Positions 12,185 to 59,306 of a stretch of DNA of 64,000 nt are shown here, one piece after another; position 1 is the first letter of the stretch; every line of letters starts with the position of its first letter. The position numbers were made by a program, and so were the translations under genes. The notes under the pieces were generated by a model. That model had not been told where the DNA came from and searched no databases. It saw nothing but the letters and a program-made list of their open reading frames with translations. The stretch lies in contig CACVQR010000008.1 of NCBI GenBank assembly GCA_902756345.1, forward strand, positions 1-64,000, read 5' to 3'. Source of the stretch: Fibrobacter succinogenes. GTDB lineage: Bacteria > Fibrobacterota > Fibrobacteria > Fibrobacterales > Fibrobacteraceae.

Positions 12185-13030
12185 TTAAAGTTGTTGTTTA
12201 TTCTTTCTTCTAGGGCGGCGCACAATGAACAGGCATGCACCAATCAACACAAGGGTCACCGAAATCACCTTGCCCATCGGGAACGTTTCCGAAAATACGA
12301 GCACGCCGGCCAAAGTCGGCACCGCAGCGCCAACGGCCGCGCTGAACGGAATAATGAACAGCGCGCGACCGCGGGAGAACGATACCTGCGAATACAAGAA
12401 GGCTATGCCATACGTCGCAATGTAGCCGAGCGTCCTAAAATCCAAAAGCAAGTTCGCAATCGAAGAAAGTTCGATATGGTCCAAGTCAAAATCCATCGCG
12501 AGACTCTTATAGAATGCTGCCGAAAGTCCAAAACCCACACCCATAATCAAGGAGTCGACCATTTCGCGGTCCTTGACCCACAAATGCGCCAGCAACGTCA
12601 CGGCACTCAGCCCGCCGGCGTATGCCCACAGCATTCCGACATTCTGGACCGCCGTCGATCCGCCCAGGTTTTCGACAGAGTACAACAGGCCAGCCACCAC
12701 AAAACAAATCGCGATCACAATGCGCTTGGTCAAAGCCTCTTTCAAAATGCAAAATCCCATGAGGGCGGTAAGCACCGGATTCAAGACCATCATGGGCTGC
12801 ACCTGGCTCAAGTCATAGCGGGCCATGGCAATGTAGTAGCCGAGCGTGGCAAGGCCAGAACAGCAAATACCTAGCCACCAGAACTTGTTGGTGACAACAC
12901 CCTTGAAAAATTCCCAAGGTTTCGAAGTACCGCCCGTGCGCTTGCCCACCGCAGACACGCCCGATTTTTCGAGAATGTTCCCGCAAGCAAAAAGAAACGC
13001 CGGTCCGATAGTAAGGAGAAGAAAGAGCAT
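12185..13030 (-). CDS. DMT-superfamily (EamA-like) transporter
   Basis: A 281-residue membrane protein with about ten predicted helices in two repeats of five, the design of drug/metabolite transporters: LFLLLTIGPAFLFACGNILEK at the N-terminus, LSQVQPMMVLNPVLTALMG near 82 and the second half ending IPFSAAVGAAVPTLAGVLVF. The C-terminal tail is basic (RRPRRKNKQQ). Substrate is unknown. The start codon is only 15 bases after the stop of the four-helix-bundle gene and 4 bases from the end of that repeat element, so its upstream control region seems to have been supplied or disrupted by the element. Confidence 0.8.
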   Translation of the reverse strand: MLFLLLTIGPAFLFACGNILEKSGVSAVGKRTGGTSKPWEFFKGVVTNKFWWLGICCSGLATLGYYIAMARYDLSQVQPMMVLNPVLTALMGFCILKEALTKRIVIAICFVVAGLLYSVENLGGSTAVQNVGMLWAYAGGLSAVTLLAHLWVKDREMVDSLIMGVGFGLSAAFYKSLAMDFDLDHIELSSIANLLLDFRTLGYIATYGIAFLYSQVSFSRGRALFIIPFSAAVGAAVPTLAGVLVFSETFPMGKVISVTLVLIGACLFIVRRPRRKNKQQL

Positions 13031-13033
13031 AGC

Positions 13034-13478
13034 AGTTGGTAGAACTTAGTTGGTAGAACTTAGAAATTTTCTAGAAGTAGGTTTTTCTAATCCATGCAAC
13101 ATCTTAATAATTTCATTTAAAGCTACTATAGAGGTTTGAACATCTTCATCATTTAAATAACCAAGATTTTTACAAATCAAAAGTTGAGTTTCCAACTCTG
13201 TTGCTGAACCTCTGGCAACTCTCATGAAAAAAGATTTTTCATTTTGATTATAACGACCACAGCCTTCAGCAATATTAGACGGTATAGAAACAACAGCCCG
13301 CCTCATCTGATCTGACAATGCGTAATTTTCTTCCCTAGGCAATTTTTTTACAAGGCCATAAACATTCGTAGTCAAAGACATAGCCTTTTGCCAAACAATC
13401 AATTTCTTATAATTCGATTCCATACGTATATAGAACGGTTGTTCTAAAATCTAAGTTCTAAGCTCTAAGTTCTATAAC
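13034..13478. mobile_element. Heptamer-arm element carrying a four-helix-bundle gene
   Basis: Left arm: two exact copies of GTTGGTAGAACTTA (13035-13062), i.e. four 7-bp units. Right arm: 7-bp units CTAAGTT, CTAAGCT, CTAAGTT, CTATAAC at 13451-13478. The arms are inverted relative to each other (AGAACTTAG versus CTAAGTTCT) and enclose one ORF. The ORF's stop codon (TAA) lies inside the left arm, so its last residues are encoded by the repeat; the stop codon of the upstream slt gene (TAG, 13472-13474) lies inside the right arm. Related arrays without the ORF occur at 39313 and 51660. No transposase is present. Confidence 0.65.
13046..13423 (-). CDS. Four-helix-bundle protein (S23 / IVP-like)
   Basis: A 125-residue all-helical protein of the family first seen in the intervening sequences of 23S rRNA genes; Avd of diversity-generating retroelements has a similar fold. 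Signatures: YKKLIVWQKAMSL, VYGLVKKLPREENYALSDQM, RRAVVSIPSNIAEGCGR, and the final helix. The molecular role is not established. Here it stands outside rRNA, bracketed by inverted arrays of 7-bp units, and its last codons (LSSTN and stop) come from the repeat arm. TATATA lies just before the ATG (minus strand). The gene is much more AT-rich than slt and the DMT gene on either side, a sign of separate origin. Confidence 0.85.
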   Translation of the reverse strand: MESNYKKLIVWQKAMSLTTNVYGLVKKLPREENYALSDQMRRAVVSIPSNIAEGCGRYNQNEKSFFMRVARGSATELETQLLICKNLGYLNDEDVQTSIVALNEIIKMLHGLEKPTSRKFLSSTN

Positions 13479-15799
13479 CCATCATAGATTTCCTGGTAGA
13501 TCCAATAATTCCCCATGACGCGCTTTACGTAGTCGCGGGTTTCCCAATAGCTAATGTCTTCGGCGCGCACATCCCAGGACTTGCCTTCGCCAGCCGCCTG
13601 CCAGCGCTTGGTGGGCTTGGGGCCTGCATTGTAATTGCCCAGCACGTACATGTAGTCGTCATTATATTCGGTCTTCAAGTCAACCAGGTAGCGGATTCCC
13701 AGACGAATGTTCATGTAGGCATTAAACAGCTGACGCGGCTCGAAATTCGGGATGCTTTCTTTTTCGGCAAGCATTTTGCCCGTTGCAGGCATAATCTGCA
13801 AGAGTCCGCAGGCACCAGCCGGCGACATGATTTCAAAATTGAAAATCGATTCCTGGCGCATCACGCTGTATACAAAGAACGGATCGATGCGGTCACCCGA
13901 ATGGAACTTGACCTGGTCCATGTACGGAACAGGGAACAGGTAATGCAGCACGTCGATGGGCGGCGCCATCAGGCGGCGTCGATCGATATTGTTCTGGAAC
14001 TGGCGAGCGAGGCGATACCCGGCAGCGGTTTCGCCCATTTCGTAGAAGAGTTTGCCGTATTCGTACAAGAAATCCAGACGTTTCGCGTTCTTCTTGCGGG
14101 CTTCGTCGTAAAGGGCAAAGGCCTGATCGCTAAAGCCGTACTGGAACAGCGTGCGAATGCGGTTGTAACGTTCCGGATTGTAAGTCGTATCGGGCTTGCC
14201 CACCTTCTGCGAGGCACGCACCCAGGCAAGCGTCTGTTCCGGAGCCATGCGCACGCCGTGTGCATACGGTACATCCTTTTCAGCCATCAGCTTGTATTCC
14301 ACCAACTTCATGCGGCTGCGGTGAGCATAGTAGGCCAGCGGGAAATCGCGAATACAGTCGAGGTAAGCTTCACGGGCCAAGGAGTCCTTTCCGATCTTCA
14401 TGTAGGCATCGCCCAGGAACATGCGGGCGCCGCTTCCGCTCCACAGGAACGGCTCCTTGGTTGCCTCAATCAGCGCCGGAATCGCTTCATTCCACTTTTC
14501 CTGTTTGAAGTACACAAAGCCAATACGGAACTTGGCCCACTGGCGCTTGATATTATTCTTAAAGCGTTTGTGCGAAAGAGTCCTGTAGCAAACAATGGCG
14601 CTATCGTACTGTTCCTTCTGTTCGTATTCGAAACCCTTCACCCACAAGTTGTTGGCGTTTTCCTTGCTGAACTGGTTTGCATCTTGCAAGGCGGCATCCA
14701 TCTTGCGGATTTCCTTTTCGTAACGGGCGGCGTTATTGCGGTACAGGCGCAGAATCGACTGCATCCACAAGGGGCGCGCTTCTACAGAATCCAGCAGGAA
14801 CTTGAACTGCTTAATGGATTCATCATCGCGCTTGAGCGTGCGCAATGTCACTGCGCGCTTTTCCCACAAGGCAATACGGGTTCCCATATCCAAGGAGCTC
14901 GGCGCAAGCTTTTTCTGCAGCGAATCTTCGGGCGGCGGGAGCGCCGCCTCCGGCGAAAGCGAGACAAGCACCGAATCCAGAATGCGAATGGAATCCAACA
15001 GAGTCAGGCATTCGTTGGCATTATCTTTGGCGCAAGCCATCCTGGCATAAGCCACCTTTTCTTCCAAAGTCTCGGGAGCGCCACGCACCTTGCGCAGCCT
15101 ACGGATGGCAGCGAAAGCGGAATCCTTGTAGTTAGAGGCACTCGTCAGGAGCCTCAGGTAAATTCGCTTCGCCTCTTTCATCTGCTTGAACTGTTCCAGA
15201 TACTGGGCATAGCGATAACGCAAAGCCGCCGCATCGTCGGACTTCGGGTACTTTTCCACGAAAACCTTCAACGAATCCGCATGGGCGCGGTCACTCAACG
15301 TAGAGTCAGCCATCGCCGCCTCAATGCGTAACCTGGATGCAACGCGGTCAAAAGAAGCATCCTGGTCCAGATTCTTGTACAGTCCCAGCACCACGCGCAT
15401 ATTCTTGTAGTCACGCAGCTTGAACAGGCACTTGGCCATTCTCAAAATCACGGAGCCATCCAACAGGGCATCGCGACCACGCAGGGAATCGTAGGCGAAG
15501 TAGGCGCTGTCCCACCATTCCTTGTAAAAGAACTGGGCCGCACGTGCAAAGTCGCGGACGTTCTTGGGCTGTGCCTTGTCTTCGCTCAAAGCCTTCAGGC
15601 GGTCGTAGCGCACCACCACATCCTGGAACTGCGAGGGCGGAATCTGTTCCAGGGACTCGTACGGATTCGGGGGCGTAAACGGCATCGACGCAATCAAGCT
15701 ATCAGTCGCTTGCGATGGTAGCGGACTCGGCGCCACAGACGTAGAGCCTGCGAACACGCACACGCCTAAAAACACAACCAACAAAACAATCCTACACAT
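13472..15799 (-). CDS. slt: Soluble lytic murein transglycosylase, Slt70-like
   Basis: The 775-residue precursor has a signal peptide (MCRIVLLVVFLGVCVFAGS), a long helical TPR-like superhelix, and a C-terminal SLT domain: FFVYSVMRQESIFN (catalytic Glu near residue 647), SPAGACGLLQIMPATG and YVLGNYNAGP. It cleaves peptidoglycan to 1,6-anhydromuropeptides in the periplasm. The start at 15799 is chosen for the signal peptide and the TAGGAG site before it; a longer frame to 15964 is not supported. A small hairpin (AAGGACC/GGTCCTT, 15822-15838) lies in the 88-base gap after ptsI. The stop codon is inside a repeat arm, so the original C-terminus may have been slightly changed. Confidence 0.92.
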   Translation of the reverse strand: MCRIVLLVVFLGVCVFAGSTSVAPSPLPSQATDSLIASMPFTPPNPYESLEQIPPSQFQDVVVRYDRLKALSEDKAQPKNVRDFARAAQFFYKEWWDSAYFAYDSLRGRDALLDGSVILRMAKCLFKLRDYKNMRVVLGLYKNLDQDASFDRVASRLRIEAAMADSTLSDRAHADSLKVFVEKYPKSDDAAALRYRYAQYLEQFKQMKEAKRIYLRLLTSASNYKDSAFAAIRRLRKVRGAPETLEEKVAYARMACAKDNANECLTLLDSIRILDSVLVSLSPEAALPPPEDSLQKKLAPSSLDMGTRIALWEKRAVTLRTLKRDDESIKQFKFLLDSVEARPLWMQSILRLYRNNAARYEKEIRKMDAALQDANQFSKENANNLWVKGFEYEQKEQYDSAIVCYRTLSHKRFKNNIKRQWAKFRIGFVYFKQEKWNEAIPALIEATKEPFLWSGSGARMFLGDAYMKIGKDSLAREAYLDCIRDFPLAYYAHRSRMKLVEYKLMAEKDVPYAHGVRMAPEQTLAWVRASQKVGKPDTTYNPERYNRIRTLFQYGFSDQAFALYDEARKKNAKRLDFLYEYGKLFYEMGETAAGYRLARQFQNNIDRRRLMAPPIDVLHYLFPVPYMDQVKFHSGDRIDPFFVYSVMRQESIFNFEIMSPAGACGLLQIMPATGKMLAEKESIPNFEPRQLFNAYMNIRLGIRYLVDLKTEYNDDYMYVLGNYNAGPKPTKRWQAAGEGKSWDVRAEDISYWETRDYVKRVMGNYWIYQEIYDGL

Positions 15800-15887
15800 A
15801 TTTTCTCCTAAAGTCTGCCGCAAGGACCTTCGGTCCTTCAAGCAGGGAGCGTTACCGCAAACCGATTCTGCGATAGGCTCATTCCGT

Positions 15888-17708
15888 CTATTTCTTACTG
15901 CTGTCCACCTGACCCACAAAGCTGGAGATGCCCAAGTCGCGAATCGTCTGGGCATACTTGCCACGCATAAAGGAGTTCACGCTTTCCGCATCATCCATCT
16001 GCAACACCGTCAGCGCAGAATCGCGCACATCTTCGAAGTTAATCGAGCGAATAATCTTCTTTGTGGACATCACGCTCCACGGAGTCATCGAGAGTTCGTC
16101 AACTCCAAGGCCAACCAGCAGCAGCACGCTCAACGGGTCCGCACTCATTTCACCACAAACCGCCACAGGGATTCCTTCACGGTGTGCCGCCTGAACCGTC
16201 TGGTAAATCATGCTGAGCACTGCCGGATGGTGAGGCTGGAACATGTCCGTAATCAATTCGTTCGTACGGTCCACGGCAAGCGTAAATTGTACAAGGTCGT
16301 TCGTACCGATGCTAAAGAAGTCCACTTCTTTGGCGAGCTTGTCGACAATCATCACGGCAGCAGGCACTTCAATCATCACGCCGATTTTCACCTTCGCGAC
16401 TTTCTTGCCGGCCGCTTCCAGTTCCTTTCGGCACTTGACAATGCATGCCTTGGCGCGACGGAATTCTCCCATGCCAGAAATCATGGGTAACAACAGCCGC
16501 AAGTTTTCCTTGGTGTTGGCAAGGAGCAAGGCCTTGAGTTGCGTACAGAAAATATCTTCGCGGTCCAAGCACACGCGAATGGAACGCCAACCCATAAACG
16601 GGTTCGATTCGTTCACTGCCGTAATGCCACTCACCAGCTTGTCGCCGCCGGCATCCAGAGTACGGATCGTCACCGGGCAGGGGTACATGGTTTCAAGAAT
16701 GTAGCGGTACGCGTCGCGCTGTTCATCCTGAGTGGGAGCGTCGTTTCGCAAGAACAAAAATTCAGAACGGTACAGGCCGATTCCCGTCGCACCGAAGTCG
16801 GTCACCTTTTCCGATTCCGACGGAAGTTCAATGTTGGCGTGCAGGGTAATGTACTTGCCGTCGCGGGTCATCGGCTCCAGCTGGCGCATCGTGAACAATT
16901 CACGGCGCTGCCTTTCGAAGACTTCTTGCCTTTCGTGGAAATCCTTGACGTCATCCTGGTTCGGATTGATAATGACCTGGCCGCTTGAGCCGTCGACAAT
17001 CACCGTGTCGCCGGTCTTGACTTGGGCCGCAAAATTTCTAAGGCCAGACACCAACGGTATCTGGAGCGAGCGAGCCAAAATGGCCACGTGGCTCGTGCGG
17101 CCACCGGTATCCATCGCAAGCCCCGCCACCTGGCCGGGCTTGATCGACATCAAAAGGCTCGGTAAAAGTTCGTGCCCGACAAGCACCACTCCGTCTTCGG
17201 TAGCCACATCCTCGAGCACCGGTCCGGAATCTTCCATGGCCGCCATCAAGCGGTTGTACACGTCCCTCAGGTCGGCCGCCTTGTCGCGCATGGCCGGCGA
17301 GTCAATCTGTTCGAACTTGTCGATGTAGGCACCCAAGACCACATGCACCGACCAGCGGGCATTCTTGTGTTCCTTGCGGACCTTGTCGATTACCCCGTTG
17401 ATCAAAGTGGGGTCCTGTAAAATCATCAGGTGAGTCGCAAAGATTAGGCTGTCCTTCATCCCGGTGCGACTTTCGGAAAGTTCCTTGATCTGTGAAACTT
17501 CCTTGACCGTCTTGTGGACCGCCTTCAAGAAAAGCTGTTCTTCGTCCGCAAGTCGGCTCTCGGGGAGAGTCTCCTCCACCACCGAAATCTTCCGGTTCGT
17601 GACCGGAAAAATACATCCCATGGCAAAGCCCGGGGATGCAGGAACGCCCGTCATAACAGTACGGACGTGTTCCGGCTTCTTAACAGGGTTCTTCGTTGAA
17701 GTGGTCAT
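15888..17708 (-). CDS. ptsI: Phosphoenolpyruvate-protein phosphotransferase (enzyme I)
   Basis: A 606-residue enzyme I that autophosphorylates from PEP and passes phosphate to HPr. The phospho-histidine motif GGRTSHVAILARS places His 207; the PEP-binding half has LYRSEFLFL, TLDAGGDK, NPFMGWRSIR, GVMIEVPAAV, FFSIGTNDLVQFTLAVDR and the catalytic Cys of VAVCGEMSAD. The start at 17708 overlaps the end of ptsH by 29 bases, so the pair is co-translated. No sugar-specific EII gene is present in this window; a regulatory rather than transport role is possible. Confidence 0.95.
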   Translation of the reverse strand: MTTSTKNPVKKPEHVRTVMTGVPASPGFAMGCIFPVTNRKISVVEETLPESRLADEEQLFLKAVHKTVKEVSQIKELSESRTGMKDSLIFATHLMILQDPTLINGVIDKVRKEHKNARWSVHVVLGAYIDKFEQIDSPAMRDKAADLRDVYNRLMAAMEDSGPVLEDVATEDGVVLVGHELLPSLLMSIKPGQVAGLAMDTGGRTSHVAILARSLQIPLVSGLRNFAAQVKTGDTVIVDGSSGQVIINPNQDDVKDFHERQEVFERQRRELFTMRQLEPMTRDGKYITLHANIELPSESEKVTDFGATGIGLYRSEFLFLRNDAPTQDEQRDAYRYILETMYPCPVTIRTLDAGGDKLVSGITAVNESNPFMGWRSIRVCLDREDIFCTQLKALLLANTKENLRLLLPMISGMGEFRRAKACIVKCRKELEAAGKKVAKVKIGVMIEVPAAVMIVDKLAKEVDFFSIGTNDLVQFTLAVDRTNELITDMFQPHHPAVLSMIYQTVQAAHREGIPVAVCGEMSADPLSVLLLVGLGVDELSMTPWSVMSTKKIIRSINFEDVRDSALTVLQMDDAESVNSFMRGKYAQTIRDLGISSFVGQVDSSKK

Positions 17709-22593: not shown

Positions 22594-23538
22594 ATGCCAG
22601 GCATCATCCGTTTTGCACCGAGCCCTACGGGCTTTCTACACGAAGGGCACCTGCTTTCCGCCCTTTACGTGTACGCCGCCGCAAAAAAATGGGACCTCAA
22701 AATCCACCTGCGCATCGAGGACCACGATCAAGGCCGTGCCCGCAAGGAATATATCGAAGGCATCCGCGAAGATCTCGCCTGGTTCGGCTTCAAGTACGAC
22801 AGCGAAAGCATCCAGAGTTCGCATTTTGACTTTTTCCAGAAAGTTCTCGACAAGCTCACCGCCAATGGCCTCGTTTACCCCTGCACCTGCAGCCGCAAGC
22901 AATTGCAATCCGAAAACCCCGTAAGCGAAACCGGCGAAGTCATTTACCAAGGCAAGTGCTATAACGAATTCAGAATTCGGAATTCAGATTTCGGAGTAAA
23001 AAATTCTAAAGTGCGAACTCCAAACTCCGAATTACCGCATAGCCTGCGCATCGTAATTCCAGACAAAGTAATCAACTGGCACGACGAACGCCTCGGCGAC
23101 TTCGCCGAAAATCCGAAAAAGCAATGCGGCGACTTCCCTATCCGCGACCGCGAAGGCTTTTGGACCTACCAATTCGCCGTCTGCATCGACGACCTCACCG
23201 AAGGCATTACCCACATCGTCCGCGGCGAAGACATCCGCAATTCCACCGCCCGCCAGATTGCGCTTTCCCAGCTGATTGCCGACACCTGCCAGGGCGACCA
23301 GGCCCTTGCTATCCCCCCGTACACGCGAGCACTGTATTTGCACCACCCCCTTATTGTGGATTCCGGCGGCAAAAAGCTTTCCAAGCGCGAACACGCCTAT
23401 AGCCTCCGCCAAGACAAGGACAGGGGTAAAACGCCCCAGGAACTCCTTGGGCAAATCCTCTACAAAGCGGGATTTTTGTCCAACAATACCCCGACAACGT
23501 TGGAACAGGCGATAGCGACCGTCGCAGAGCGTCTATAA
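22594..23538 (+). CDS. gluQ: Glutamyl-Q tRNA(Asp) synthetase
   Basis: A 314-residue truncated class I synthetase that glutamylates queuosine in the anticodon of tRNA-Asp and lacks the anticodon-binding domain. HIGH-type motif in FAPSPTGFLHEGHLLSAL (residues 6-23), RIEDHDQGRA, the Cys region YPCTCSRKQL near 89, and the KMSKS-type motif KKLSKREH near 262. Residues 125-147 (EFRIRNSDF to TPNSEL) are encoded by a 69-bp repeat insertion that keeps the frame, placed after the YQGKCYN segment, a usually variable loop. TATCTT at 22581-22586 lies 7 bases before the ATG. Confidence 0.9.
   Translation: MPGIIRFAPSPTGFLHEGHLLSALYVYAAAKKWDLKIHLRIEDHDQGRARKEYIEGIREDLAWFGFKYDSESIQSSHFDFFQKVLDKLTANGLVYPCTCSRKQLQSENPVSETGEVIYQGKCYNEFRIRNSDFGVKNSKVRTPNSELPHSLRIVIPDKVINWHDERLGDFAENPKKQCGDFPIRDREGFWTYQFAVCIDDLTEGITHIVRGEDIRNSTARQIALSQLIADTCQGDQALAIPPYTRALYLHHPLIVDSGGKKLSKREHAYSLRQDKDRGKTPQELLGQILYKAGFLSNNTPTTLEQAIATVAERL
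22966..23034. repeat. Heptamer-array insertion inside gluQ
   Basis: 7-bp units GAATTCA, GAATTCG, GAATTCA, GATTTCG (22966-22993) form one arm and CGAACTC, CAAACTC, CGAATTA (23014-23034) an inverted, imperfect second arm, with a short AT-rich centre. Length 69 bp = 23 codons, starting exactly at codon 125, so the frame is kept. Confidence 0.75.
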
Positions 23539-27710: not shown

Positions 27711-27821
27711 AATGCGGAATGTGATGTGTGCGTGCGGCTTCGCCGCAATGCGCAAAGCGCGATGTGGAATGACAAATGTGGAATGAATAATTTCACATTC
27801 CACATCTCACACTACACATTC
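27711..27821. repeat. Heptamer array with inverted arms and hairpins
   Basis: Units AATGCGG, AATGTGA at 27711-27724 and GATGTGG, AATGACA, AATGTGG, AATGAAT at 27761-27788, then four clean inverted units CACATTC, CACATCT, CACACTA, CACATTC at 27794-27821. ATGTGGAATG/CATTCCACAT forms a 10-bp stem (27776-27805). Two more hairpins lie inside: GCGGC/GCCGC near 27734-27746 and GCGC/GCGC near 27751-27761. It fills the gap between two convergent genes and touches the stop codon of the SPOR gene; it may also act as a terminator. Confidence 0.7.
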
Positions 27822-39300: not shown

Positions 39301-39312
39301 CTTCGCTGCGCA

Positions 39313-39385
39313 GTTGGTAGAACTTAGTTGATAGAGCTTAGATATATAGAACTCTCTAAGTTCTAAGCTCTAAGATCTAAGTTCT
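39313..39385. repeat. Empty heptamer-arm element
   Basis: Units GTTGGTA, GAACTTA, GTTGATA, GAGCTTA (39313-39340) and inverted units CTAAGTT, CTAAGCT, CTAAGAT, CTAAGTT (39356-39383) with a 15-base centre. The arms match those around the four-helix-bundle gene at 13034-13478, but the ORF is absent. A GCGAAGC/GCTTCGC hairpin (39290-39306) overlaps the stop codon of the gene just before. It may double as a terminator and lies directly before the promoter of the MATE gene. Confidence 0.75.
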
Positions 39386-39406
39386 TTTTCTATCTTTGGC
39401 GCCGAA

Positions 39407-43663: not shown

Positions 43664-44479
43664 TTATTTCTGTAAAATACTTATTGCACGCTCTATAAGC
43701 TCGGGTTTTAGATCAAAAACGCGGCTCAAGGTTTCGACACGTGCCGATTCCTCGATTTTTTCGATACGGGAACCATTCGCATCGCGGGTCACGAGATTAC
43801 CCTTCTGGTAATAGTACTGCACGCCACGCTCGCGGTCCAGGCGGTTGAGCACCGGGTAAGTCATCATTTCGCGGTAAAAACTTTCGTTCCAGTGCTGCTT
43901 GAATTCTTCGACGGAGACTCCCTCGACAGGGTATTCGAAGCGGAGTTTCATCGGGGCTCCCGCACCGCCCGTCCACAAGGCCATGCTGTCCATTGTAGGG
44001 CGGTCCAGCCTTACCGTATTCGGAACCAGCGGGAAAAAGGCTGAGCCCGTTCCTGACGGGGGCGGGAGCGGAATCGGGAGCGGATCGAAAATCAAATAGC
44101 CCGGATCGAAGAGGTATTCAGTAGGATGTAGGAAGTTAGAAGTAGGAAGAATGTTTGAAGTAGAAAAGGTGTTGCTGGATTCAGAATCGGGAAGGATTAA
44201 GGCGCAGTGGATATTCTTTTCCTTGCGCTTGTGGCCCATGACAAGGCGCGGGTTTAGCCCCATGTCCCTGAACACCTGGTACAGGTGCCAAGTCATGCTA
44301 AAGCAGGTTCCGCCGCCCATCCAGGCGTCTACATCGTTCTGAAAACTGTCGTCCAATTTTTGCGCGGCAGTAGAACTCCCCGTGGATTCCAGACGAATAA
44401 TTTTCGTCAGGTTCTCGTAGGTAACTTTGGACAACTTATCGCAGACGTCCTGGATTCTTTTCCATTGTTCGGGGAGCAT
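43664..44479 (-). CDS. Arylamine N-acetyltransferase/transglutaminase-like protein
   Basis: A 271-residue protein with a Cys-His-Asp arrangement like arylamine N-acetyltransferases: GGGTCFSMTWHLYQVFRDMG (Cys near residue 77), KNIHCALILPD (His near 95-102) and YLFDPGYLIFDP (Asp near 124). NATs use the Cys to move acetyl or other acyl groups; related transglutaminase-like folds hydrolyse amides. Residues about 104-120 (NTFSTSNILPTSNFLHPTE) are encoded by an in-frame heptamer array between the His and Asp motifs. Start at 44479 follows a TATCTTTG box by 6 bases; a longer frame to 44620 is not supported. Activity is uncertain. Confidence 0.65.
   Translation of the reverse strand: MLPEQWKRIQDVCDKLSKVTYENLTKIIRLESTGSSTAAQKLDDSFQNDVDAWMGGGTCFSMTWHLYQVFRDMGLNPRLVMGHKRKEKNIHCALILPDSESSNTFSTSNILPTSNFLHPTEYLFDPGYLIFDPLPIPLPPPSGTGSAFFPLVPNTVRLDRPTMDSMALWTGGAGAPMKLRFEYPVEGVSVEEFKQHWNESFYREMMTYPVLNRLDRERGVQYYYQKGNLVTRDANGSRIEKIEESARVETLSRVFDLKPELIERAISILQK
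44121..44168. repeat. Heptamer-array insertion inside the NAT-like gene
   Basis: Seven units of 7 bp: GTAGGAT, GTAGGAA, GTTAGAA, GTAGGAA, GAATGTT, TGAAGTA, GAAAAGG. The frame is kept and the encoded residues are Ser/Thr/Asn-rich, unlike the rest of the protein. Confidence 0.6.
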
Positions 44480-49603: not shown

Positions 49604-49631
49604 ACTCGGACTTCGGAGTTCAGAATTAATA
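49604..49631. repeat. Single-arm heptamer array
   Basis: Units ACTCGGA, CTTCGGA, GTTCAGA, ATTAATA start 2 bases after the stop codon of mltG. The units resemble those inserted in gluQ. Confidence 0.6.
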
Positions 49632-49639
49632 AAGAAAAA

Positions 49640-51659: not shown

Positions 51660-51687
51660 GTCGGCAGAACTTAGAGCTTAGAAATAG
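51660..51687. repeat. Single-arm heptamer array
   Basis: Units GTCGGCA, GAACTTA, GAGCTTA, GAAATAG; same sequence family as the arms at 13034 and 39313. It lies between the unknown gene and birA, 6 bases after the stop codon. Confidence 0.6.
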
Positions 51688-59250: not shown

Positions 59251-59273
59251 AGCTCCCGTCCGGGAGCTTTTTT
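59251..59273 (+). terminator. Terminator of tRNA-Ser
   Basis: AGCTCCCG/CGGGAGCT with a 2-base loop, followed by six T. Confidence 0.9.
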
Positions 59274-59306
59274 GCATTCCCCATTCCCCCATCTCACATC
59301 TAATTG
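59274..59306. repeat. Heptamer array at the end of comF
   Basis: Units GCATTCC, CCATTCC, CCCATCT, CACATCT (59274-59301), of the same kind as the array at 27711-27821. The stop codon of the comF gene (minus TAG, 59300-59302) lies at its edge. Confidence 0.5.

What the first reader, a model, noticed from the sequence alone, without database searches (positions are those of the whole stretch)
13034..13478. Four-helix-bundle gene bracketed by inverted arrays of 7-bp units: a candidate mobile element
A small S23/IVP-like gene is enclosed by inverted arms built from degenerate heptamers (AGAACTT-type units). Its stop codon lies in one arm. Arms of the same sequence occur without the gene at 39313-39385 and as a single arm at 51660-51687, as expected of an element with full, empty and solo forms. 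Heptamer arrays of other sequence occur at 22966, 27711, 44121, 49604 and 59274. The ORF is AT-rich compared with its neighbours. No transposase is seen, so movement may depend on the four-helix-bundle protein, on a host enzyme or on RNA. The link between this protein family and heptamer arrays is, to my knowledge, not a standard annotation.
Basis: partly seen in the sequence, partly recalled or inferred. Interest (0 to 1): 0.8.

Follow-up and report, generated by a model that had tools for sequence, protein, structure and literature searches.

The report
S23-gene mobile element with heptamer arms
A tiny bacterial gene of unknown function sits between mirror-image stretches of repeated 7-letter DNA, and comparison of many genomes indicates that it belongs to a widespread, apparently undescribed kind of mobile element whose protein drives the spread of matching DNA hairpins.

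Summary
The S23/IVP four-helix-bundle gene (13046-13423, minus strand) lies between inverted arrays of 7-bp units. All three S23 genes of this Fibrobacter genome do, each with a different heptamer; 68 of 71 S23 genes in the genus, 67 of 80 from many phyla and 17 of 21 from viral contigs carry a 7-bp array on at least one side, and when both arms are clear they are usually inverted (52 of 55; 43 of 52). Arms and gene travel together: related S23 proteins have the same heptamer, unrelated ones at the same insertion site do not. Gene-less hairpins with the window element's own arms are scattered through the genome and are present or cleanly absent at orthologous sites in relatives. Genomes carrying one S23 lineage hold the eight highest counts (of 61) of that lineage's heptamer; 5 of 5 independent sister contrasts agree. 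No reverse transcriptase or Y1/RAYT transposase is found in the genome. Best reading: a minimal mobile element whose S23 (Avd-fold) protein mobilises cognate hairpins, in cis and in trans. Binding and chemistry are inferred, not shown. I found no paper linking S23 to heptamer arrays; preprints and most subscription journals could not be searched.

The parts
13034..13474 (-). Whole S23 element (arms + gene), between a lytic transglycosylase gene (13472-15964, minus) and a DMT-type transporter gene (12185-13030, minus)
   Evidence: arms pair across the gene in the predicted fold of either strand
13046..13423 (-). S23/IVP four-helix-bundle gene, 125 aa, stop codon inside the left arm
   Evidence: PF05635 9e-39, TIGR02436 1e-35; AF2 pLDDT 93, best PDB match 2GSC, then 2RLD and Avd 4DWL
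13034..13063 (+). Left arm: (TTGGTAG AACTTAG) x2
13441..13474 (-). Right arm: array of ARCTTAG-type units (read on the minus strand)
39312..39385 (.). Solo hairpin with the same asymmetric arms and no gene; absent at the orthologous site in G030, G003, G010 and G005
51660..51687 (+). Single degenerate arm (AGAACTTAGAGCTTAG), downstream of a stop codon
22960..22998 (.). Array of GAATTCA/GAATTCG units, the heptamer type found with the second Fibrobacter S23 subfamily
   Evidence: heptamers of L123-L126
27711..27819 (.). Inverted pair of degenerate heptamer arrays (TGTGGAA-type), solo hairpin
   Evidence: 27744-27771 and 27790-27818
44120..44151 (.). Degenerate TAGGAAG array, the heptamer of the S23 element at G000:C3:175777
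49605..49633 (.). Degenerate GAGTTCG/GAATTCG-type array
59273..59304 (.). Short CATTCCC array, weak

Best explanation
The S23 gene with its two arms is a minimal mobile element of about 440 bp. The arms are inverted arrays of a 7-bp unit (rarely 8) that fold into a hairpin. Each S23 lineage has its own heptamer. The S23 protein, a four-helix bundle of the Avd fold, most likely recognises hairpins with its cognate heptamer and promotes their insertion into short gaps between genes and into arms of older elements. It acts on its own element and, in trans, on gene-less hairpins, which therefore multiply in carrier genomes. SHOWN: arms, their inversion, co-inheritance of heptamer and S23 lineage, clean presence/absence at orthologous sites, reuse of single sites by unrelated elements, cognate copy number following the S23 lineage, purifying selection on S23. 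INFERRED: that S23 binds the heptamers, that it is the mobilising factor and not merely linked to it, and the chemistry, perhaps with host replication or repair enzymes supplying cutting and joining.
For: Arrays at S23 genes: in Fibrobacter lag-7 matches average 15.4 and 17.5 of 21 on the two sides, other lags 9-10, control windows 9.2; across phyla 15.5 and 15.6 against 9.7; viral contigs 17 of 21 with an array on at least one side. Inversion: heptamer mismatch between left arm and reverse-complemented right arm 1.3, against 3.1-3.2 for permuted pairs. Lineage: protein distance against heptamer distance rho 0.38, permuted maximum 0.10; at the lysS|lolE site, S23 pairs 0.02-0.2 apart differ at 0.34 positions, pairs over 0.45 apart at 3.23, i.e. 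random. Empty/occupied sites for S23 and for solos; one site is empty in three relatives and holds three unrelated heptamer hairpins in others. Trans effect: GTAGRMRG arrays, the 8 carriers of the cognate S23 have 113-311 hits and the best of 53 non-carriers 89, p=2e-6; 5/5 phylogenetically independent pairs agree; GAGACGA p=6e-5, TAGAACT p=9e-4. dN/dS mostly 0.04-0.18.
Against: No nuclease or recombinase motif is recognised in S23. No clear target-site duplication was seen. Arrays persist in genomes without any S23 found (G014, G003, G047), and G051, without the cognate S23, has 94 TAGAACT-type hits, so copy number is not strictly tied to a present gene. Five independent pairs cannot give p under 0.05 alone (0.0625). 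Across all phyla the protein-heptamer correlation is not significant (rho 0.055), as expected when most proteins are too distant, but still not positive evidence. Seven of 52 cross-phylum loci have direct rather than inverted arms.
Confidence: 0.72

Rival explanations
1. S23 is a passenger or accessory. The heptamer hairpins are moved by another, unlinked enzyme, and S23 is kept for some other role (for example protecting or processing the hairpin RNA).
For: S23 shows no known catalytic motif; arrays occur without S23 in some genomes; solos outnumber S23 elements greatly.
Against: Heptamer copy number follows the specific S23 lineage, not just any S23; S23 and heptamer are co-inherited at distance under 0.35. 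The two enzyme classes tested, reverse transcriptase PF00078 and Y1/RAYT PF01797, are absent from G000.
Confidence: 0.15
2. The hairpins are regulatory or terminator elements and S23 is their RNA- or DNA-binding regulator; spread is by ordinary slippage, gene conversion and horizontal transfer.
For: Strong RNA hairpins, some followed by T runs; in two sites relatives have an intrinsic-terminator-like hairpin where G000 has the heptamer hairpin (seg1, seg4).
Against: Solos sit in all contexts (21 co-directional, 8 convergent, 7 divergent); the empty L039 site, between two co-directional genes, has no hairpin at all (seg2); heptamer identity changes at a fixed site between close relatives.
Confidence: 0.08
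3. Retro-mobility: the S23 element moves through RNA with a reverse transcriptase, as Avd acts in diversity-generating retroelements.
For: S23 has the Avd fold (4DWL and DGR RNP chains among the top PDB matches, TM 0.72-0.73) and weak similarity to Avd profiles.
Against: No PF00078 domain in G000 and in most S23 genomes of the genus.
Confidence: 0.04
4. The arrays arise by polymerase slippage, for which 7 nt happens to be favoured (the published guess), and the S23 association is incidental.
For: Heptamers are the commonest long simple repeats in many prokaryotes (reported in PMC4679880 and PMC4692102); array length varies between copies (3 to about 17 units).
Against: Both arms of a locus carry the same unit in inverted order, empty sites are clean, control windows lack arrays, and copy number follows the cognate S23.
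Confidence: 0.01

Closest known systems
23S rRNA intervening sequences (IVS) with an S23/IVP ORF (Leptospira, Coxiella, Brucella; PMC4990558)
   Same: Same protein family; gene enclosed by complementary ends that form a long stem; long suspected to be mobile. The Coxiella IVS even has tandem heptamers (GACAGAT) upstream of the ORF, varying in number between strains (PMC4990558).
   Different: IVSs lie in rRNA helices and are cut out of rRNA by RNase III; the elements here lie between protein genes, have dozens of gene-less relatives and lineage-specific heptamers. The heptamers were not linked to the protein family.
REP/REPIN hairpins with RAYT transposase
   Same: Architecture (from general knowledge of that system): one or few chromosomal copies of a gene flanked by inverted hairpin units, plus many dispersed gene-less hairpins in the same genome, in short intergenic gaps.
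   Different: RAYT is a Y1 HUH transposase; S23 is an unrelated four-helix bundle, and G000 has no Y1 transposase. Units here are 7-bp tandem arrays of variable sequence.
Avd of diversity-generating retroelements
   Same: Fold and distant sequence similarity; homology also noted in PMC10053308.
   Different: No reverse transcriptase in the genome; stand-alone gene between heptamer arms.
Heptamer repeats: TAACTGA of Beggiatoaceae (PMC4679880), GGGAATC of Xanthomonas and GGGGATT of Nostoc (PMC4692102), cyanobacterial STRR
   Same: Intergenic tandem 7-mers, in Xanthomonas often as inverted pairs (70 pairs in X. campestris), sequence specific to lineage, origin unexplained.
   Different: Neither paper mentions S23. 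X. campestris, whose GGGAATC arrays were described, also encodes the S23 protein of PDB 2GSC; whether the two are adjacent could not be tested here.
MITEs
   Same: Short, gene-less, inverted-repeat, presence/absence polymorphic.
   Different: No parent transposase known, no target-site duplication found, arms are tandem arrays.

Membership tests
PF05635 / TIGR02436 (S23, 23S rRNA IVP) protein family | Profile score above curated cut-off; four-helix-bundle fold | tested here: met
   132.4 vs 33.8 bits; 122.2 vs 24 bits; AF2 model, 2GSC top hit TM 0.85
23S rRNA IVS | Located inside a 23S rRNA gene | tested here: not met
   Lies between two protein genes; only tRNAs found by Rfam in the window
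23S rRNA IVS | Complementary ends forming a stem around an S23 ORF | tested here: met
   25-nt arms, 84% complementary; they pair across the gene in both strands' folds
23S rRNA IVS | Excision from RNA by RNase III | not testable with these tools
   Needs RNA-seq or in vitro cleavage
REPIN-RAYT system | Y1 (HUH) transposase, PF01797 | tested here: not met
   No match in G000
REPIN-RAYT system | Gene flanked by hairpin units that are also dispersed without the gene | tested here: met
   Solo hairpins with the window element's arm types
Diversity-generating retroelement | Reverse transcriptase | tested here: not met
   No PF00078 in G000
Diversity-generating retroelement | Avd-type accessory protein | tested here: inconclusive
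   Same fold, but Avd profile scores below cut-off: 32.3 vs 40 and 32.2 vs 80 bits
MITE / insertion-sequence derivative | Target-site duplication | tested here: inconclusive
   No consistent duplication at seven sites with counterparts in relatives; TAG at some junctions
MITE / insertion-sequence derivative | Parent transposase with the same ends | tested here: inconclusive
   S23 is the only gene seen between such arms, but only loci chosen for S23 or for one heptamer were read; no transposase inside the element
Prokaryotic heptamer simple-sequence repeats | Tandem 7-nt units, intergenic, above chance | tested here: met

The most novel reading that the evidence does not exclude
S23/IVP proteins are a new class of mobilising protein, unrelated to any known transposase, recombinase or reverse transcriptase, each recognising its own heptamer. 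The long-noted excess of 7-nt tandem repeats in bacterial genomes (TAACTGA, GGGAATC, STRR and others) is largely the footprint of such elements, and rRNA intervening sequences are members that landed in rRNA helices.
Probability: 0.55. Interest if true: 0.95.

Novelty: categorically new. Interest (0 to 1): 0.88.

Why it matters
It offers a testable function for a common family of unknown bacterial proteins, solved structurally in 2006 and still annotated 'four helix bundle protein'. It offers a cause for the unexplained abundance of 7-nt repeats in bacteria, so far put down to polymerase slippage. It would join rRNA intervening sequences, scattered heptamer hairpins and cyanobacterial repeats into one family of mobile elements. 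If the protein does mobilise hairpins, it does so without any known catalytic fold, which would be new chemistry or a new way to recruit host enzymes.

Tried and rejected
Reverse transcriptase as partner: none in G000 and most S23 genomes. RAYT: none in G000. Rfam family for the hairpin: none. S23 in annotated phage records: none; 24 hits in 2.9 million viral contigs, so not mainly viral. Terminator reading: placement in divergent and tight co-directional gaps speaks against it as the general role. 'Portable stop codon' idea (7 mod 3 = 1, so three TAG units stop all frames): holds in Fibrobacter (0.50 of arms read inward, 0.16 outward) but not across phyla (0.37 vs 0.40). TAG itself is enriched inward in both sets (48 vs 25 expected; 47 vs 20). 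Target-site duplication: none consistent. The flank of X. campestris XCC0516 could not be fetched.

Full report
WHAT IS IN THE WINDOW. The S23/IVP gene at 13046-13423 (minus) is a clear member of PF05635 and TIGR02436. It lies in the gap between a lytic transglycosylase gene and a DMT-type transporter gene (those two names are my reading of the sequences). Its arms are (TTGGTAG AACTTAG)x2 on the left and an ARCTTAG array on the right, inverted to each other; the two ends pair across the gene in the predicted fold of both strands. The ORF is 33% GC between neighbours of 53-54%. The same arms without a gene are at 39312-39385 and a degenerate single arm is at about 51660. Lag-7 arrays exceed all other lags up to 13 and shuffled sequence in the window.

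THE ASSOCIATION IS GENERAL. This genome (27 contigs, 3.36 Mb) has three PF05635 genes. All three are bracketed by heptamer arrays of three different sequences: TGAGTTT, TAGGAAG/TAGACAG and TAGAACT types. Of 61 Fibrobacter genomes, 40 carry the family. In 71 loci the best 21-position lag-7 score averages 15.4 upstream and 17.5 downstream, against 9-10 at the other lags from 4 to 12 and 9.2 in 685 control windows. Across phyla (80 loci: Bacteroidota, Clostridia, Planctomycetes, Acidobacteria, Verrucomicrobia, Gemmatimonadota, CPR and others) the values are 15.5 and 15.6 against 9.7. At least one arm scores 15 or more in 68/71 and 67/80; five more of the 80 have period 8. These 80 were the best matches to a Fibrobacter-led profile, and include a few Fibrobacter loci, so the sample is biased towards near relatives. 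Viral contigs, an independent set, give 17/21. Cyanobacterial and Gemmatimonadota plasmids show the same anatomy.

ARMS ARE INVERTED AND BELONG TO THE GENE. Left-arm heptamer against reverse-complemented right-arm heptamer differs at 1.3 of 7 positions, permuted pairs at 3.1-3.2. Without using periodicity, 55 of 80 cross-phylum loci exceed the 95th percentile of permuted pairs for inverted similarity. Where both arms are clear, 52/55 and 43/52 are inverted; seven cross-phylum loci have direct arms. In Fibrobacter, heptamer distance follows S23 protein distance (Mantel rho 0.38, permutation maximum 0.10). At the single lysS|lolE site, similar S23 proteins have the same heptamer and dissimilar ones have unrelated heptamers. 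Three S23 lineages with three heptamers have thus reached the same gap. In some genomes the arms are nested: G057 has a TAGTGGT element inside leftover TAGACAG/TTCCTA outer units, and G038 and G051 have one inside leftover GAGACGA units, as if later elements entered arms of earlier ones.

PRESENCE AND ABSENCE. The S23 element is present at slt|DMT in G000 and G057 and absent in, for example, G005 and G020, where only a few bases separate stop and start codon. The lolE site behaves alike. For gene-less hairpins I searched joined flanks of ten G000 hairpins in six relatives and aligned seven sites. The window hairpin at 39312 is absent in G030, G003, G010 and G005. One site (L039) is empty in G003, G010 and G049 (TTTAG|GATG), holds the TAGAACT hairpin in G000 and G005, a GAATTCG hairpin in G057 and a third type in G030. 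This is hard to explain by slippage and natural for insertion. No consistent target-site duplication is visible.

SOLOS SHARE THE WINDOW ELEMENT'S ARMS. In the regions read, more than 30 G000 hairpins fit TAGTTGGTAGARCTTAGTTGGTAGARCTTAGA-loop-TCTAAGTTCTAAGCTCTAAGTTCTA, with the same left/right asymmetry as the S23 element. They lie a median of 14 nt from ORFs on either side, in co-directional, convergent and divergent gaps.

DOES S23 DRIVE THEM? S23-positive genomes have more TAG/GAG-type arrays (median 27.7 vs 4.3 hits per Mb, p=1.3e-4). The sharper test is lineage-specific. The TAGGAAG-type S23 is carried by eight genomes; they have 113-311 hits to GTAGRMRG x3 and are exactly the top eight of 61, the best non-carrier having 89. 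The same genomes are not comparably enriched in other heptamers. On a lolE tree the carriers are scattered (7 changes); all five independent pairs on well-supported branches go the expected way at a threshold of 100 hits (with a threshold of 20 hits about three of five differ, all in the expected direction), the smallest possible sign-test p being 0.0625. Examples: G010 174 vs G005 16; G000/G030 247/229 vs G057 21; G031 191 vs its near twin G013 51. G013 carries the GAGACGA-type S23 at that site instead and has 49 GAGACGA hits against 11 in G031. GAGACGA and TAGAACT families show the same trend more weakly, with exceptions (G051, G018, G003), which can be loss of the gene, incomplete assembly or older copies. 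Hits are overlapping pattern matches, not elements.

THE PROTEIN. dN/dS is 0.04-0.18 in most pairs; one copy (L115) reads frameshifted near its end. Invariant residues Q39, S46, N50, E53, E76 and nearly invariant R42, R57, Q80 are polar. The model (pLDDT 93) matches 2GSC and 2RLD, then Avd 4DWL and the Avd chains of the DGR ribonucleoprotein. The 2GSC protein is a pentamer (PMC4990558 citing Lin et al. 2006). The fold is thus related to a protein that works with nucleic acid and a reverse transcriptase, but G000 lacks reverse transcriptase and Y1 transposase domains.

MECHANISM. Most likely an S23 oligomer binds the hairpin formed by the cognate arms, in single-stranded DNA at the fork or in a cruciform, and promotes its transfer into gaps or arms elsewhere, with host enzymes doing the cutting and joining. 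This last part is inference. TAG is enriched in units read inward (47 of 108 arms, 20 expected) and recurs at some junctions, so it may be the joining point; I have not shown that. In RNA the same stem would resemble an rRNA IVS and could be cut by RNase III, limiting damage to operons (inference from PMC4990558).

WHAT IS KNOWN. Heptamer repeats are reported as the most abundant long simple repeats in many genomes, ascribed to polymerase slippage (PMC4679880, PMC4692102). TAACTGA arrays were suspected of horizontal transfer without a mechanism, and a repeat-binding protein as the mobile entity was raised as a possibility (PMC4679880). The Coxiella IVS has heptamers GACAGAT in variable number (PMC4990558). 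IVP ORFs occur in CPR rRNA insertions (PMC11270868). No paper found links S23 to heptamer arrays; preprints and most subscription journals were outside the search.

VERDICT. Observation confirmed; interpretation as a mobile element supported and extended to a class found across bacterial phyla, with lineage-specific heptamers.

Noticed in passing
L121-L137 (Fibrobacter), e.g. L124, L131: A second, distant S23 subfamily (about 91-100 bits, motif SKQ..RSGTSIGANV.EA) also has inverted heptamer arms, of TGA/GAATTCG type; window arrays at 22960 and 49605 look like its solos.
   Followed up: partly
L215, L218, L258, L271 (Bacteroidota); L264, L269: From reading the flanking protein ends by eye, S23 elements with different heptamers sit in what looks like the sdhA|sdhB gap and a thiolase|acyl-CoA dehydrogenase gap in different species, suggesting recurrent targeting of tight operon junctions.
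   Followed up: no
L319 (Pseudanabaena plasmid), L322 (Anabaena sp. 90 plasmid): S23 lies between cas6 and cas4 (in L322 next to type I-D cas1) on two cyanobacterial plasmids, with different heptamers; arms look direct in L319 and inverted in L322.
   Followed up: partly
L345 and L346 (viral contigs): Near-identical S23 loci differ in the orientation of the outer part of the 5' arm (TTCAACG vs TTGAACG units), as if part of the arm had flipped.
   Followed up: no
L224, L261, L278, L340: A minority of S23 loci have 8-bp instead of 7-bp units.
   Followed up: partly
right ends of solos L045, L061, L067, L068 and window 39386-39395: The outer end often abuts a TAnnTTT motif resembling a Bacteroidetes-type -7 promoter box; insertion just upstream of promoters may be common.
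   Followed up: no
L046, L056, L049: Several solos share a similar loop (AGAGAAGAGATTGTT-like), hinting that some solos are copied from one another.
   Followed up: partly
L115 (G053): The S23 gene reads frameshifted at its C-terminus although the genome still holds many cognate arrays; a possible recently inactivated copy.
   Followed up: no
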